The position numbers and the translations under genes were made by a program. Positions 24,462 to 37,921 of a DNA stretch of 37,921 nucleotides are shown in pieces. Positions within the stretch are counted from its first letter, which is position 1. The number at the start of each line of letters is the position of its first letter. The stretch is from Oscillospiraceae bacterium. GTDB taxonomy: Bacteria; Bacillota; Clostridia; Oscillospirales; UBA929. The DNA lies in the NCBI GenBank assembly GCA_031253545.1, contig JAIRWH010000033.1, forward strand, positions 1 through 37,921, read 5' to 3'. The notes below the pieces were generated by a model. It made no database searches, was not told the DNA's origin, and was given only the letters and a program-made list of their open reading frames with translations.

Positions 24462-26228
24462 TCAGGGCAGCATGGTCAGGTAATTGTATGGGTCGAGCAC
24501 AGCGTAAAAGGCGGGTTTGGCCTTGTTGTTGCGGTCAAAGAGCAGGGGGTGGCGGTCGGAGCGCCAGCTCTGGCGGTCGCTCACGCCCCAAAACGTGACC
24601 CGCGCAATCAGTTTCTTAGACGCGTCGGTATTGGCGCTGCCCGCGGCGTATTCCCTGTAGATGAGAAACAGTTCGGAATAAAGGCTCGCTTGCAGCAGCG
24701 CCTCCTGCTCGTTGAGCGCGTCGTTGCCCTGCGACGAGGCGATGGTGATGTCCAGCTCCGTCACGCTCACCTCAATGCCCGGCAATGTGTTAAACAGCTC
24801 TATGGAGCGGCGCACATTGGCGGGGGAGGTGCCTTGGTTGTAATGGCCCTGCATACCGATGCCGTCTATGGGCACGCCCTTGCCGCGAAGCTCCTCCACC
24901 ATGTCATATACGTTTCGGGCCTTTGTGGCGAAGTCGAGGTTGAAGTCGTTGTAATAGAGCTTGAGGTCGGGTCTGCCGATGGCGCGGCGCACCTCGTCGG
25001 CCTTGGTGAAGGCGATTTCCAAAAAGTCCGCGCCAAGCGCGGTAAACCAGCCCGCGTTGCGGAGGTTGGCCGTCCAATTACCGCTGCCGCCGCTGTCGGT
25101 AAACGCCTCGTTTACCACGTCCACGGCCGTGAGGTCGGGGCCCACGTGCGTGAGCACGGCCTCGATGTGCGCCTCCAAACGCGCGCGGGCGAGCTCCTTG
25201 TCGCTCCAAAGCCACGCGGGGCTTTGGCTGTGCCAGGCGAGGGTGTGGCCGATGATATTGATGTTATTGCTCTTCAACACGGCAATCTCGCCGTCAAGGG
25301 TGGAGAAGGTGAATACGCCCTCCGTACGCTGCACCGCGTCCGGCTTCATCTCGTTGCCAAACGTGAAGGCGTTGAAGTGGCGGGTGATAATATCCATGCG
25401 CTTGCTCGAAAGGTCTGCGGGCGAACCTGCCGCGCCGAGCAGGAAATAGTCGGCGTAGGCGGCGGCAAGCGAGGGCAGGTCCGTCTGCGGGTCGTCGTTC
25501 ACCTCGTCTTGGTATACCTCCACGCTGATGTCGTCTAAATACCACACCTCAGGGTGCGTGGGCTCGTCGTTGGTGTAGAAGCGGAAGTCCAAGAAACCCA
25601 TGAGCGCGCCGAGGCGGCTTGTGGGGAAGTCCACCCGCATCCATGTGTCGTAGGTCACGGTGCCCGCCGTGCCCACGCTGTTGGGAAACTTAAACTCGTT
25701 GTCGCCCGCCTCGCTGTTAATCAGTATGCCGGGGCCGATGAGGGCGCTTTTGCCTTCGTGGCCCTCCGAGGGCACATAAAACCACGCGGAGAGTATATAG
25801 TTGGTGTTGGCGGGCAGCGGTTCGGGGAAGGTCAGCCTCACGCCGTTGGGTATGGACATATAGTCCGTGCCCTCGATATGGCGCACCTTATAGGAAGCGC
25901 CGTCGCCGTTGTGGCTCAGGCCGCCGGAGATAACCTCGCCCTCGGCCTGCTCGTTTGCCGCGATTGTGCCGCCGGCGGCCTCCAAGGCGGCAAAGTCGGC
26001 GTCGGTGAAGCTAAACGAGAAGAGAAGCTCTGTGGGCGGGCCGCTCGGCGAGGGCGAGGGCGAGGGCGAGGGCGAGGGCGGCTCGTCGGAGGGAGAGGGG
26101 TCTGCGCTCGGCGAGGGGGAGGGCGAGGGCGACGCTCCGTCGCTCGGCGAGGGCGAGGGTGAGCCGGAGCAGGCGACGATGAGGCAGAGAGCCAAAAGCA
26201 GGGGAATGAACTTGACGCTTTTTTTCAT
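24462..26228 (-). CDS. Secreted lipoprotein GH10 endo-1,4-beta-xylanase with carbohydrate-binding-like domain
   Basis: The 588-aa protein has a lipoprotein signal ending at IVAC (Cys-20), a Pro/Ser linker to about residue 64, a beta-sandwich region (about 65-245; SWxYVPSEG-like, WYLDDISVEVY) resembling CBM4/9/22-type modules, and a GH10 catalytic domain (about 255-585). The acid/base Glu lies in AVDVVNEAF (near 373) and the nucleophile in VSVTELDI (near 490); GHTLAWHSQSPAWLW and GIGMQGHYN are also family motifs. It would cleave xylan while anchored to the outer face of the membrane. The first 32 codons or so belong to repeat A. The ATG overlaps the preceding gene's stop (ATGA). Confidence 0.93.
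   Translation of the reverse strand: MKKSVKFIPLLLALCLIVACSGSPSPSPSDGASPSPSPSPSADPSPSDEPPSPSPSPSPSPSGPPTELLFSFSFTDADFAALEAAGGTIAANEQAEGEVISGGLSHNGDGASYKVRHIEGTDYMSIPNGVRLTFPEPLPANTNYILSAWFYVPSEGHEGKSALIGPGILINSEAGDNEFKFPNSVGTAGTVTYDTWMRVDFPTSRLGALMGFLDFRFYTNDEPTHPEVWYLDDISVEVYQDEVNDDPQTDLPSLAAAYADYFLLGAAGSPADLSSKRMDIITRHFNAFTFGNEMKPDAVQRTEGVFTFSTLDGEIAVLKSNNINIIGHTLAWHSQSPAWLWSDKELARARLEAHIEAVLTHVGPDLTAVDVVNEAFTDSGGSGNWTANLRNAGWFTALGADFLEIAFTKADEVRRAIGRPDLKLYYNDFNLDFATKARNVYDMVEELRGKGVPIDGIGMQGHYNQGTSPANVRRSIELFNTLPGIEVSVTELDITIASSQGNDALNEQEALLQASLYSELFLIYREYAAGSANTDASKKLIARVTFWGVSDRQSWRSDRHPLLFDRNNKAKPAFYAVLDPYNYLTMLP
26046..26082. repeat. Hexanucleotide repeat encoding the Pro-Ser linker of the xylanase
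   Basis: GAGGGC is repeated five times between about 26050 and 26079 and encodes Pro-Ser repeats on the minus strand. Copy-number change would alter linker length without a frameshift because the unit is two codons. Confidence 0.7.
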
Positions 26229-26268
26229 AAAGGCACCTCCCGAAAAGTATGGTGGGGTTTGTTGCTTA
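26133..26268. repeat. Direct repeat A, copy 1 (lipoprotein leader of the xylanase)
   Basis: 136 bp identical to 27577-27712 except one base (T at 26160, C at 27604). On the minus strand it holds 40 bases of upstream DNA with GGGAGGTG, the ATG, the signal peptide and the first Pro-Ser codons. Its upstream edge reaches into the end of the 104-aa gene, whose last residues and stop are encoded inside it. Confidence 0.97.
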
Positions 26269-26539
26269 TGCCCCACAGTTTCTCAGTTTCGCGCAGGTAT
26301 TCTCCCCGACGCTCACCCGTGAGTTCATTTGCGCCCGCAATGAAGTAGAACCACGGCAGACCGTGCTTTTCCAATTCCGGCTCGCATGGCTCATAGTAGT
26401 CTGCGTCGGCGTGCTTTGCGGTCGCGCGGCGGCATTCGCCAAAGGCTTCGTCGCACCCGCGCCCCTCTTCGGACCACAGAAAGCAGAAAGCCTTGGGGCA
26501 TATGCTTGCGGACGGTTTCTTGTTTATATCCCATTCCAT
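26225..26539 (-). CDS. Unrecognised small Cys-rich protein (module gene 2)
   Basis: The 104-aa product is unlike anything I recognise. It has Cys at CPKAFCFLW, GCDEAFGECRR and YEPCEPE, many acidic and aromatic residues, and no signal peptide or membrane segment. AAAGGAG precedes the ATG at 26539. It lies 7 bp after the 90-aa gene. Its last 14 codons and TGA lie in repeat A, so its C-terminus is made of sequence that is non-coding at the other copy of the repeat; the native C-terminus may have been replaced. Its TGA overlaps the xylanase ATG, which could couple the two genes. Confidence 0.55.
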   Translation of the reverse strand: MEWDINKKPSASICPKAFCFLWSEEGRGCDEAFGECRRATAKHADADYYEPCEPELEKHGLPWFYFIAGANELTGERRGEYLRETEKLWGISNKPHHTFREVPL

Positions 26540-26546
26540 AATGTAT

Positions 26547-26819
26547 TCACTCCTTTTTGCGTGAAACGCTCCACCCTGATTTGGTTTTCACGTTGAAGAC
26601 CTTGCCGGACGGACTCTCAAAATAGTGGAGCGATATTTCATTCCCTTCCGAATCGAACCCGTCTTTGTAGACCTTCTTCCAGTGTCCTGCCTCGACTTTC
26701 CGCAGTTCGTGCAACAACGCCTTCCCCTCGATATTCACTTTCTTTGTGCCGTTTCGTACGCTCTTGAATCCTTGCGGGTACCCGGGCGCGCGCTTGACGG
26801 AATCGTAGATACGTTTCAT
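26547..26819 (-). CDS. Unrecognised small basic protein (module gene 1)
   Basis: The 90-aa protein is basic and compact. It ends in a region EAGHWKKVYKDGFDSEGNEI followed by SLHYFESPSGKVFNVKTKSG, which looks like an antiparallel beta-sheet domain. GGAGGGGC lies upstream of the ATG at 26819. It has no signal peptide. The pairing with the next gene (7-bp gap) recalls toxin-antitoxin or toxin-immunity pairs, and the other copy of the same flanking repeats encloses hicAB. That is an argument from position, not homology. I do not recognise the family. Confidence 0.55.
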   Translation of the reverse strand: MKRIYDSVKRAPGYPQGFKSVRNGTKKVNIEGKALLHELRKVEAGHWKKVYKDGFDSEGNEISLHYFESPSGKVFNVKTKSGWSVSRKKE

Positions 26820-26851
26820 TCCGATTGCCCCTCCGCACCTTTCGGGGGTTC

Positions 26852-26968
26852 CCCGTCAGTATTGCCCGTATTCCTGTATGCCGAACATCACGGCCCGCAT
26901 GCTCGTGAGCAGGCTGCCGTTGTTGATACTGCCCGCCGTGGAGAGGTGGAGCCCCCGGCCCGTGCGCC
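26852..26968. repeat. Direct repeat B, copy 1 (orphan 3' end of the UroD-like gene)
   Basis: 117 bp identical to 28255-28371. On the minus strand it encodes the last 37 or so residues and the stop of the UroD-like protein plus 4 bases, but here there is no gene body upstream of it: the LRR gene ends 18 bp before. It is therefore a gene fragment copied to a new place. Confidence 0.97.
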
Positions 26969-26986
26969 GGGCGTGTATGCGGGGGG

Positions 26987-27672
26987 TTAGGGGGAGCGTT
27001 GGGTGCCGAAAGTGATGCGTGTTCTGCTCTCGTCAAGCCCTATGATGGCGGATTTGTCGGGGAAGTAGTTGTCGTAGCAGGTAAGCGTCGTCAGCGCGGT
27101 GTTGCGGGATACGTCTAAGGTGGTGAGTCGGTTGCCGCTGCAATTAAGCTCCGTCAGCGCGGTGTTGCGGGATAGGTCTAAGGTGGTGAGTTGGTTGCAG
27201 TAGCAGATAAGCTCCGTCAGCGCGGTGAAGTACTCTATGCCGGTTAGGTCTTTGATGTCGCCGCGTACCTCTAAAGCTCCACTCACGTCAAGGCTTGTCA
27301 CCCCCGCCACATCGCCCTTGGTAATAGCTCCTGTGGGTTTGCCTATGGCCTCCCGCACAGCGGCCTCAAAGGCGGGGTCGGGGAAGGTGATGACGGTGCT
27401 GTCCGGCAAGGACGACAACGGACTGGGTGACGGGCTCTGGCTCGGACTCGGCGAATCCTCCGGCGAGGGGCTTGGTGTTGACACTATCGTATCGCCGCCA
27501 TTATCGGGCGTTGGGTCAGGGCTTGGCGATGGGCTAGGCGACGGGCTCGGTGACGGTACGGGTGTGTTCGTGCCGCCGCTCCGTCGCTCGGCGAGGGCGA
27601 GGGCGAGCCGGAGCAGGCGACGATGAGGCAGAGAGCCAAAAGCAGGGGAATGAACTTGACGCTTTTTTTCAT
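26987..27672 (-). pseudogene. Leucine-rich-repeat lipoprotein, out of frame at the leader junction
   Basis: The ATG at 27672 and the signal peptide (lipobox IVAC) are the same as in the xylanase, but after GAC GGA GCG the frame closes at a TAG near 27488. One extra base there would open into GGTNTPVPSPSPSPSPSP, a Pro-Ser linker, a cap (FPDPAFEAAVREAI), and three repeats of the type LTELxCxxNxLTTLDxSRNTA encoded by 63-bp units (27089-27220). The break is at 27577, the exact end of repeat A. The body alone could start at GTG 27484 but would lack export. It would be a surface-exposed LRR protein if in frame. Sequencing error, phase-off state or failed fusion are all possible. Confidence 0.75.
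27089..27220. repeat. 63-bp tandem repeats inside the LRR gene
   Basis: CGTCAGCGCGGTG recurs at 27089, 27152 and 27215, that is every 63 bp, giving 21-codon repeats. The first two units are nearly identical between 27091 and 27185, and the third is diverged after about 10 bases. The high DNA identity indicates recent duplication. Confidence 0.85.
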
Positions 27673-27712
27673 AAAGGCACCTCCCGAAAAGTATGGTGGG
27701 GTTTGTTGCTTA
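27577..27712. repeat. Direct repeat A, copy 2 (leader of the LRR lipoprotein)
   Basis: 136 bp, identical to 26133-26268 except one base. It carries the ribosome binding site, ATG and signal peptide. Its end at 27577 coincides with the point where the LRR reading frame is lost. Confidence 0.97.
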
Positions 27713-27734
27713 CCGCGGCAAAGCGGCGGCCTAT

Positions 27735-28025
27735 TCAGTAAACCGCCGCGGAAAGGCTGCGGCGCGTGACCGTGTGCGCGGTGACAAGCACGGCTCTTTG
27801 GCGGCCGGAGAGCGAAATATTCTCCAAAGGCGTGGGTTCGGGGGCGTGAACGCCCGATTCGTCCGAGACCGCGAGCCACCCCCTCAAGGCTTCCTCCGCG
27901 TTGAGCAGGGCTTCATCATCGCTTTCGGCGCAGGTCAGACAACCCGGCAAGTCCGGGAACTCAACGCTGATACCGTCTTCGGCGTAATCAAATATCGCCG
28001 CGTACGCGCGCATGCCTTCTCCCAT
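27735..28025 (-). CDS. hicB: HicB-family antitoxin
   Basis: The 96-aa protein begins with YAAIFDYAEDGISVEFPDLP followed by GCLTCAESDDEALLNAEEAL, the partial RNase H-like fold of HicB. HicB neutralises HicA. Its C-terminal part (SLSGRQRAVLVTAHTVTRRS) is short, and a ribbon-helix-helix or HTH DNA-binding domain is not obvious. Its start overlaps the hicA stop by one base (TAATG); a second ATG at 28013 follows GGGAGAAGG and may be the true start. It ends 22 bp before repeat A copy 2. Confidence 0.85.
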   Translation of the reverse strand: MGEGMRAYAAIFDYAEDGISVEFPDLPGCLTCAESDDEALLNAEEALRGWLAVSDESGVHAPEPTPLENISLSGRQRAVLVTAHTVTRRSLSAAVY

Positions 28026-28234
28026 TACGGTTTCCGCCCTTTCTGTGGAATACCCGCCTGCCTCAGTATTGACGCGGCGGTTTTCAGCGGTAAATCTTTC
28101 TTAGGGTGCGGTACCGTGACAATACCTTTCCCCGTGCCGTGGCGGAATATGTGATGGCTGCCCTCAACGCGGGCAAGGCACCAACCTCTGTCTGTGAGCA
28201 ATTTGATAATCTCCTTGGACGAATAACTCCTCAA
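28025..28234 (-). CDS. hicA: HicA-family toxin (mRNA interferase)
   Basis: The 69-aa protein shows the full HicA dsRBD-like fold: SSKEIIKLLTDRGWCLARVE followed by GSHHIFRH, the conserved catalytic His region, then VTVPHPKKDLPLKTAASILRQAGI. HicA cleaves mRNA and tmRNA when not held by HicB. The start is probably the TTG at 28234, as no ATG or GTG is in place; GGGAG lies 14 bases upstream. It begins 20 bp after repeat B copy 2, that is directly after the UroD-like gene. Confidence 0.88.
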   Translation of the reverse strand: MRSYSSKEIIKLLTDRGWCLARVEGSHHIFRHGTGKGIVTVPHPKKDLPLKTAASILRQAGIPQKGRKP

Positions 28235-28254
28235 AGGCTTATGCCGCTCCCTTG

Positions 28255-28371
28255 CCCGTCAGTATTGCCCGTATTCCTGTATGCCGAACATCACGGCCCG
28301 CATGCTCGTGAGCAGGCTGCCGTTGTTGATACTGCCCGCCGTGGAGAGGTGGAGCCCCCGGCCCGTGCGCC
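28255..28371. repeat. Direct repeat B, copy 2 (3' end of the UroD-like gene in place)
   Basis: 117 bp identical to 26852-26968. This copy is the natural 3' end of the gene at 28259-29374; the other copy is an orphan fragment. Confidence 0.97.
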
Positions 28372-29374
28372 TGGCGGCCTCGCAGTCGCGGCGCACCTCC
28401 GCGATAATCGCGTCCTCGTCGTTGTTCATAAAGGTCATGGGCGAGAGCTGCCCGTCAATGCGCGTGCGGGGCATATGGGCGCGGATTTCCTCCACGGTGA
28501 GCGTGGGGCCGAAGTTGCAGGCGGTGAGGTTCAGGCGCGCGAGTATGGGCAGCAAATGACCCATGGCGGAGTCGGAGTGCTGGTAGCGGTAATCCCCGGG
28601 GTTCGGGCAGATGTAATCGAACGTCTTTTTGAGCACGGGGTAGCCAAACGCCTCATACATCTCCGGGTTGAGCATACAGCATTCGTCGTCGGAAAATGAG
28701 AAGGTGTGCGGCCTGTCGGCTTCGGTCACGCCCGCCTCCGCGTCCATAATGTCTATATAGCCCCTGATAACGCTCGCTATGGTGTCGGAAAAGCGTTCGG
28801 CAAGCTCCGGCTCGTCCAATATAAGGTAGATGAGGTTCTCTATGCCGTACACGGAGCCGGCCAAGGTCACGGGGCCGCGCATGGCGCGCCAGCAGGGCGG
28901 CCTTTTGCCGCAAGACTCGAAAAGGCGCTTCTTTTCGCTTTCCCAATTCGGCGGCAATATAAACTCGCGCAGGTCCATTTTGTCAATCTTGTCAAGCTGC
29001 GCCTCAAGCTCCCGGGGCGTGTGCATACCCTCCAGCAGCCACGTGGACACGCCGTTGTATTCATACTTGCCGCCGAATACCTCGCCTATGCCGCGTATTT
29101 CGGGAAACACCTCGGCGGCGGGCGGCAGGTTTTCGTCGAGCAGGCGGCGGCCCACAATACGCTCGGCTTTGTCGTTGTAGCGGCGGGAAAGCTCGTTGAG
29201 GCGCTCCGGCGGCGTGACCCCCCAGGGGTTGCCCTCTTCGCCCAGCTCCGCAAACAGGCACTCGTGGCTCATGAGCACGCCGAGCGCCACTTGCCGCGCC
29301 GCGGGGGAAAAGCAGTTGTCTTCGTGGGCGGTGGCGTCTTTCTCCCAAAACTCGTCCAATCTCACGTTTTGCAT
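28259..29374 (-). CDS. Uroporphyrinogen decarboxylase (UroD/MtaA)-family protein
   Basis: The 371-aa protein has the UroD/MtaA-type TIM barrel: FDYICPNPGDYRYQHSDSA and ARLNLTACNFGPTL, and LHLSTAGSINNGSLLTSM at the C-terminus. The HxC zinc motif of MtaA-type methyltransferases was not seen; HSDSAMGH stands at the corresponding point. The Firmicute relatives occur near sugar genes and corrinoid methyltransferases, and their substrates are mostly unknown. GGGAGAGG precedes the ATG at 29374, 14 bp after the ThuA-like gene. A link with MtaB nearby (31230-32609) is possible. Heme synthesis is unlikely because no other hem gene is near. Confidence 0.8.
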   Translation of the reverse strand: MQNVRLDEFWEKDATAHEDNCFSPAARQVALGVLMSHECLFAELGEEGNPWGVTPPERLNELSRRYNDKAERIVGRRLLDENLPPAAEVFPEIRGIGEVFGGKYEYNGVSTWLLEGMHTPRELEAQLDKIDKMDLREFILPPNWESEKKRLFESCGKRPPCWRAMRGPVTLAGSVYGIENLIYLILDEPELAERFSDTIASVIRGYIDIMDAEAGVTEADRPHTFSFSDDECCMLNPEMYEAFGYPVLKKTFDYICPNPGDYRYQHSDSAMGHLLPILARLNLTACNFGPTLTVEEIRAHMPRTRIDGQLSPMTFMNNDEDAIIAEVRRDCEAARRTGRGLHLSTAGSINNGSLLTSMRAVMFGIQEYGQY

Positions 29375-37802: not shown

Positions 37803-37921
37803 GCGCGGGCGTGAAAGAACTAAGACGGCGCGGCGGGGGTAAATACGGCTCTGACATCGGCGAGCATGGCGTTTTCCGCGGAGTCGGGCGTTAGGGCCCG
37901 CTGCGAGCCGGAGGCGGCGTA
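37803..37921. repeat. Terminal inverted repeat, right copy
   Basis: Exact reverse complement of 1-119, described at the left copy. It lies upstream of the response regulator gene, 100 bp before the GTG at 37703. Confidence 0.95.
37820..37921 (-). CDS. C-terminal fragment of an unrecognised protein (partial, enters from the right edge)
   Basis: Minus-strand counterpart of the fragment at 1-102: the same 33 residues and TAG. The gene would lie upstream of, and in line with, the response regulator, 116 bp from its start. Nothing identifies the family. Confidence 0.4.
   Translation of the reverse strand, partial: YAASGSQRALTPDSAENAMLADVRAVFTPAAPS

What the first reader, a model, noticed from the sequence alone, without database searches (positions are those of the whole stretch)
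24462..28371. Two tandem cassettes: same boundary repeats, different contents
Read on the minus strand the order is: repeat B (117 bp, 3' end of the UroD-like gene), hicAB, repeat A (136 bp, lipoprotein leader), LRR lipoprotein body, repeat B, two unrecognised small genes, repeat A, GH10 xylanase. The repeats are essentially identical, so the event is recent, yet what lies between them is not homologous. A circle formed between the A copies would be 1,444 bp and between the B copies 1,403 bp. Integration of a small circular or linear segment by recombination at A or B would give this layout, and swapping would exchange small gene pairs and surface-protein bodies behind a common leader. This resembles a surface-protein exchange locus linked to toxin-antitoxin-like modules. 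I know of no described system of this form.
Basis: partly seen in the sequence, partly recalled or inferred. Interest (0 to 1): 0.72.

Follow-up and report, generated by a model that had tools for sequence, protein, structure and literature searches.

The report
Scrambled duplication holding clipped toxin genes
Between two ordinary genes of a bacterium, short pieces of both neighbours have recently been copied in tandem around small toxin-related genes, and because several genes at the joins look cut or out of frame it is more likely an accidental rearrangement than a system for swapping surface proteins.

Summary
On the minus strand the order is UroD-B1-hicAB-A1-LRR-B2-X-Y-A2-GH10. B is 117 bp and identical; A is 136 bp with one mismatch; spacings are 1,403 and 1,444 bp. 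The exchange-locus reading is weak. The A1 leader is out of frame with the LRR body, so no LRR lipoprotein is made behind the common leader. HicB lacks the C-terminal part of its relatives. No recombinase was found near by, the module ends share no repeats, and neither A nor B has another full copy in this genome. In two relatives the UroD end has other neighbours. X, called unrecognised, is a free-standing copy of a polymorphic-toxin C-terminal domain carried by RHS, LXG and CdiA-type proteins; 11 of 12 relatives are followed by DUF3969, whereas X is followed by the unrelated Y. Other contig ends overlap by exactly 119 bp, so the final assembly k was about 119, longer than any identical run in A or B: a simple graph-collapse chimera is unlikely, not excluded. 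Best reading: a recent tandem duplication by ordinary or illegitimate recombination, with an LRR fragment at the joint and different modules lost from each copy. The order of events is inferred. Interest is low to moderate.

The parts
28259..29374 (-). UroD-like gene (URO-D superfamily), intact; its 3' end is B1
   Evidence: PF01208 E 2.5e-13; 78% identical over its full length to G005
28255..28371 (-). Repeat B1: last 113 bp of UroD plus 4 bp
28025..28234 (-). hicA toxin, 69 aa, TTG start 24 nt after the UroD stop
   Evidence: PF07927 E 3.2e-21; phrog_353 toxin
27735..28025 (-). hicB antitoxin, 96 aa, lacking the C-terminal part of its relatives
   Evidence: PF15919 positions 9-65 of 123; eight relatives read to a full C-terminus are 129-144 aa long (lengths)
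27577..27712 (-). Repeat A1: 40 bp with the ribosome-binding site, then lipoprotein signal peptide and lipobox; leader ATG at 27672
26969..27576 (-). LRR surface-protein body (ORF end 26987), leaderless: its frame is +2 relative to the A1 leader
   Evidence: three-frame translation; LRR_4 E 3e-9; four of five paralogues whose start was read have a leader with lipobox
26852..26968 (-). Repeat B2: detached copy of the UroD 3' end
   Evidence: 38 aa of UroD at 100%
26547..26819 (-). X: free-standing polymorphic-toxin C-terminal domain, 90 aa, with its own ATG and an RBS-like GGAGGGG
   Evidence: relatives at 48-61% identity, some on RHS, LXG and CdiA/DUF637 proteins
26225..26539 (-). Y: 104 aa ORF in the immunity-gene position, no convincing relative; its last 13 codons lie inside repeat A2 and its TGA overlaps the GH10 ATG
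26133..26268 (-). Repeat A2: leader of the GH10 lipoprotein, in frame
24462..26228 (-). GH10 xylanase lipoprotein, intact
   Evidence: PF00331 E 1.6e-81

Best explanation
A recent partial tandem duplication in a gene row that probably read UroD-hicAB-X-Y-GH10. A segment running from the UroD 3' end (B) to the GH10 leader (A) was duplicated by ordinary or illegitimate recombination, possibly with taken-up DNA, and a leaderless fragment of an LRR surface-protein gene was caught at the A|B joint. Each copy then lost a different part: X-Y and the hicB tail from copy 1, hicAB from copy 2. That leaves B-hicA-hicB(clipped)-A | LRR fragment | B-X-Y-A. UroD and GH10 remain intact. Shown: the repeats, spacings, frame break, HicB shortening and identity of X. 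Inferred: the starting order, the order of events and the recombination route.
For: The A-then-B order at the centre is what a tandem duplication of a B...A block gives. A1 leader and LRR body are in different frames, as expected of an accidental joint. HicB homology stops at residue 70-86 of 96 in the eight best matches, and eight relatives read to a full C-terminus are 129-144 aa. Y's stop overlaps the GH10 start codon, as expected if Y-GH10 is an original junction. The modules have lower GC3 (hicA 60, hicB 72, X 67, Y 64%) than UroD (82) and GH10 (83), so they are probably acquired genes, though they are short. No repeats at the module ends beyond shuffled controls; no recombinase among 18 window proteins scanned. 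Such repeats are rare in the sampled part of the genome. Tandem duplications with and without flanking repeats are documented in bacteria (PMC3784515, abstract and passages).
Against: It does not explain where the LRR fragment came from: its paralogues in this genome are at most 83% identical (40 of 202 candidates scored), so it is not a fresh copy of one of those. It needs several steps with complementary losses. No related genome shows an intermediate: UroD was matched in 3 of 18 family genomes, this one included. Short HicB proteins without a C-terminal domain exist (recalled), so the shortening need not be damage. B2 ends 4 bp after the UroD stop and A1 starts 40 bp before the leader ATG, tidy positions for random endpoints.
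Confidence: 0.55

Rival explanations
1. Assembly chimera: two strains (UroD-B-hicAB-A-... and UroD-B-XY-A-GH10) were joined through A and B by the assembler, or chimeric reads bridged them.
For: The genome is a 96-contig draft. LRR matches begin at base 1 of contigs C46, C6 and C67, so LRR repeats do break this assembly. The A copies differ by one base, as two strains might.
Against: Of 52 contig ends compared (of 192; three of them all N), four pairs overlap by exactly 119 bp, two of these being the two ends of one contig, so the final k was about 119. The longest identical runs are 117 (B) and 108 (A), shorter than k, so each path through a repeat was fixed by k-mers reaching unique sequence on both sides; a collapse would need runs of at least k. 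Abundant alternative arrangements should have split the contig here. How such assemblers work is recalled, not tested.
Confidence: 0.17
2. Exchange locus: small circles or linear segments recombine at A or B and swap gene pairs and surface-protein bodies behind a common leader.
For: Two pairs of near-identical direct repeats with unrelated contents; X is from a polymorphic-toxin family, a class known to be reshuffled by recombination between shared sequences (PMC3150448, PMC3967940; passages).
Against: Leader and LRR are out of frame; HicB is shortened; A and B have no other full copies in the genome; no recombinase found; the contig is unbroken; no second example among the places scored in 38 genomes (seven candidates scored per genome).
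Confidence: 0.08
3. Additive integration of foreign DNA: a linear donor piece LRR-B-XY-A recombined by homology at A/GH10 and was joined illegitimately at its other end inside the recipient A leader.
For: Gives the whole layout in one step, with the A1|LRR joint as the illegitimate end; the out-of-frame joint fits.
Against: The donor would already have to carry an LRR-B joint; both hicAB and XY would have to occupy the same point between UroD and GH10 in two strains; no such strain is known from these searches.
Confidence: 0.14
4. Site-specific insertion: leaving out both modules, B and A would abut with 44 bp between the UroD stop and the leader ATG, so small cassettes of 542 and 583 bp were each inserted at the same B|A point of a duplicated block.
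For: Both modules end at the same nucleotides on both sides; 44 bp is a normal intergenic distance.
Against: The first and last 60 bp of the two modules show no shared ends and no inverted or direct repeats beyond shuffled controls (43 of 500 shuffles or more reach the observed score in each test); no integrase found; the shared boundaries follow equally from duplication plus loss. One imperfect inverted match (26 nt, 73%) has an arm at the B2|XY boundary, but its other arm lies inside A2, not at the module end (25 of 49 pairs shown).
Confidence: 0.06

Closest known systems
Partial tandem duplication / merodiploidy in bacteria (PMC3784515, abstract and passages)
   Same: Tandem copies of a block; the paper reports duplications with and without flanking repeats, and stimulation by DNA uptake
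   Different: There the copies have the same content or differ by a marker; here contents differ and an LRR fragment lies at the joint; much smaller scale
Orphan CdiA-CT/CdiI and Rhs-CT modules (PMC3150448, PMC3967940, passages)
   Same: X is a detached toxin tip followed by a small gene in the immunity position; recombination between shared sequences is known to reshuffle such modules
   Different: X has its own start codon and RBS-like site, no pre-toxin stretch, no second match in this genome, and its neighbour is not the DUF3969 partner of its relatives
Type II toxin-antitoxin module hicAB
   Same: HicA and HicB domains, adjacent and co-directional
   Different: HicB lacks the C-terminal part of the relatives read
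Integron or transposon cassettes
   Same: Small one- or two-gene units at a shared point
   Different: No integrase or transposase among the proteins scanned and no repeats at the module ends

Membership tests
Partial tandem duplication | Near-identical direct copies of both block ends, inner order A then B | tested here: met
Partial tandem duplication | The two copies carry the same content between the ends | tested here: not met
   hicAB and XY are unrelated, so later loss or replacement has to be assumed; not filed as a simple duplication
HicAB toxin-antitoxin system | Adjacent HicA and HicB domains | tested here: met
   PF07927 E 3.2e-21, PF15919 E 1.9e-10
HicAB toxin-antitoxin system | HicB with C-terminal DNA-binding domain (usual but not universal; recalled) | tested here: not met
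   96 aa against 129-144 aa in eight relatives
Polymorphic-toxin C-terminal domain (X) | Homology to the C-terminus of RHS, LXG or CdiA-type proteins | tested here: met
Polymorphic-toxin C-terminal domain (X) | The family's usual partner (DUF3969) downstream | tested here: not met
   11 of 12 relatives yes, window no; no Pfam match for Y
Polymorphic-toxin C-terminal domain (X) | Toxic activity neutralised by the next gene | not testable with these tools
   needs expression in a laboratory strain
   A1-LRR is +2 out of frame; A2-GH10 is in frame
   no reads available; the contig is unbroken at k of about 119
Insertion sequence / transposon / integron | Recombinase near by and repeats at the module ends | tested here: not met
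   18 proteins by Pfam; rest by eye
Assembly graph-collapse chimera | Identical repeat runs at least as long as the final k | tested here: not met
   117 and 108 against about 119

The most novel reading that the evidence does not exclude
The junction of the UroD end and the lipoprotein leader is a preferred landing point for very small (0.5-0.6 kb) toxin-antitoxin-like cassettes that insert without encoding their own recombinase, and the block was duplicated so that two cassettes are held at once.
Probability: 0.06. Interest if true: 0.65.

Novelty: new member of a known kind. Interest (0 to 1): 0.25.

Why it matters
As a rearrangement it is a small, recent example of how toxin-related modules are caught and clipped between neighbouring genes, and a warning that direct repeats around unlike contents need not mean a switching system. 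The side result may be worth more: a toxin-tip family for which no Pfam model matched, found on RHS, LXG and CdiA-type proteins, with DUF3969 as its likely immunity family.

Tried and rejected
The same boundaries elsewhere: a DNA search of the whole stretch in 38 genomes (seven candidates scored in each) gave matches in 10, own genome included; by their query positions they lie in UroD, GH10, the LRR body or Ser-Pro leader sequence, and no second A/B arrangement was seen (matches not read one by one). A UroD scan of the named genome collection gave no relative. In G005 the UroD gene has other neighbours; in G037 a second UroD-like gene follows; in G012 the gene runs off the contig.

X: a profile search of solved structures gave only chance-like matches. 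A predicted structure (6 sequences, mean pLDDT 58) was too poor, and its fold search gave nothing below E 0.8; no enzyme class is claimed. Y: predicted alone, mean pLDDT 45, useless; no match in 72,556 plasmid records or in IMG/VR; two marginal matches with stops among 197 genomes; one weak PHROG match of unknown function, E 0.02; unrelated to the gene after X's relative in L033.

A DUF3969 search of the own genome found none, but the control genomes rang in none either, so absence is not shown. PADLOC gave one weak match only, to HicB, E 0.024.

HicB alignments: my scripts picked up only 4 of the 8 nearest relatives (plus one spurious row for L128) and 5 of 11 in the earlier set, one of which (L125, 111 aa) ends early; the rest were not read.

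The first inverted-repeat scan listed 25 of 49 pairs and was too loose to decide; the ends were therefore tested against shuffles.

Papers: 'DUF3969' gave 0 papers. A search for hicAB with repeats and duplications listed 6 papers, nothing pertinent by title; an assembler search was seen as a listing only; searches are listings. PMC3784515, PMC3150448 and PMC3967940 were read as abstracts and passages.
Full report
Setting. The window is a whole contig (C29, 37,921 bp) of a 1.80 Mb draft genome in 96 contigs, 97% complete. A relative of the same family, G004, is probably the record titled Oscillospiraceae bacterium isolate Th196P3bin40: its contig C11 and the contig of L101 are both 66,077 bp and carry the same X relative.

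Observation. Both repeat pairs are real. B is 117 bp and identical (28255-28371 and 26852-26968). A is 136 bp with one mismatch (27577-27712 and 26133-26268). Each has two full copies in the genome; other matches to A cover only its Ser-Pro tail. On the minus strand the order is UroD, B1, hicA, hicB, A1, LRR, B2, X, Y, A2, GH10. In 369,172 bases of the same genome (20 stretches, about a fifth) one other exact direct repeat of at least 60 bp at 0.2-6 kb spacing was seen, so the locus is unusual for this genome.

State of the genes. UroD and GH10 are intact, and the GH10 leader in A2 is in frame. In A1 the same leader runs into the LRR body in the wrong frame: the leader frame gives no LRR, and the LRR frame (+2) has no leader. 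Of five other LRR proteins of this genome whose start was read, four carry a leader with lipobox and one (contig C44) a shortened one. HicA is complete. HicB is 96 aa; its eight best relatives match it only up to residue 70-86, and the eight relatives that I could read to a full C-terminus are 129-144 aa (L127-L130; L117, L118, L120, L126; lengths). Y runs 13 codons into A2, and its stop overlaps the GH10 start codon. All four small genes have lower GC3 (60-72%) than UroD and GH10 (82 and 83%).

Identity of X. X has no Pfam, NCBIfam, PADLOC or PHROG match. It is nevertheless clearly related (48-61% identity) to domains in 17 plasmid-collection records of Moraxella, Escherichia and Pseudomonas, a staphylococcal phage, seven named genome loci and two family genomes (one of these is among the seven). 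Three carrier proteins have recognised backbones: RHS repeats (L096), an LXG domain (L097), DUF637 and haemagglutinin repeats (L092); four shorter ones have no Pfam match. In 11 of 12 distinct loci read, a gene within about 300 bp downstream passes the DUF3969 cut-off; the exception is L033. Of the 17 plasmid records three, and of two like phage records one, were read; the toxin frame in L093 is interrupted and that of L102 is short. In the window the next gene, Y, is not DUF3969. X is thus a free-standing toxin tip, like the orphan modules of CDI and Rhs loci (PMC3150448, PMC3967940; passages), though with its own ATG and RBS-like site.

Is it an assembly artefact? Of 52 contig ends compared (of 192; three all N), four pairs overlap by exactly 119 bp; other shared stretches were 102, 61 (internal) and 26 bp. 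This points to a final k of about 119, a value in the default k list of MEGAHIT (recalled). The identical runs in B (117) and A (108) are shorter, so the graph was resolved across both. A chimera through chimeric reads, or through pruning of a minor strain, remains possible.

Mechanism. Taking B and A as ends of one block, the central A-then-B order is that of a tandem duplication. The simplest starting row is UroD-hicAB-X-Y-GH10: it accounts for hicA directly after UroD, for Y overlapping the GH10 start, and, through later loss, for the short hicB. The LRR fragment at the joint is extra and unexplained; the paralogues scored are at most 83% identical. One-step additive integration of donor DNA is a fair rival. 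Both need only ordinary recombination. Pfam found no recombinase among 18 window proteins, I noticed none among the other ORFs of at least 200 aa (by eye), and the module ends bear no shared, inverted or direct repeats beyond shuffled controls.

Exchange reading. It predicts in-frame bodies, reusable boundaries and alternative forms. The first was tested and not met. The second found no support. The third cannot be tested without reads, although an unbroken contig argues against abundant alternatives. The cassette-insertion reading (both modules at the same B|A point, 44 bp from stop to ATG when they are left out) stays open at low probability.

Verdict. A probably real, recent, local rearrangement with toxin-related content, most likely accidental. 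The toxin family with DUF3969 partners is the more useful by-product; 'DUF3969' occurs in no paper of the searched library, which lacks most subscription journals.

Noticed in passing
26547-26819; L092-L102, L033, L034: A toxin-tip family without a matching Pfam model is shared by RHS, LXG and CdiA-type proteins, and 11 of 12 relatives read are followed by DUF3969 (PF13108), which is therefore probably its immunity family.
   Followed up: partly
1-119 and 37803-37921: The first 119 bp of the contig are the reverse complement of the last 119 bp; contig C44 shows the same. Both contig ends meet one repeated k-mer in inverted orientation, so the 37.9 kb could lie between inverted repeats.
   Followed up: no
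G000 contigs C24, C58, C82, C44, C46, C6, C76: Leucine-rich-repeat proteins, several with Ser-Pro linkers and lipoprotein leaders, are abundant in this genome, and LRR matches start at base 1 of contigs C46, C6 and C67.
   Followed up: no
L034 1264-2924 (G004): A relative of X sits in a locus where the pre-toxin segment and the DUF3969 domain are themselves repeated, like an orphan toxin array.
   Followed up: no
L098 2728-2991: A Candidatus Parabeggiatoa contig also carries an X relative as a short free-standing frame of 87 codons, followed by DUF3969.
   Followed up: no
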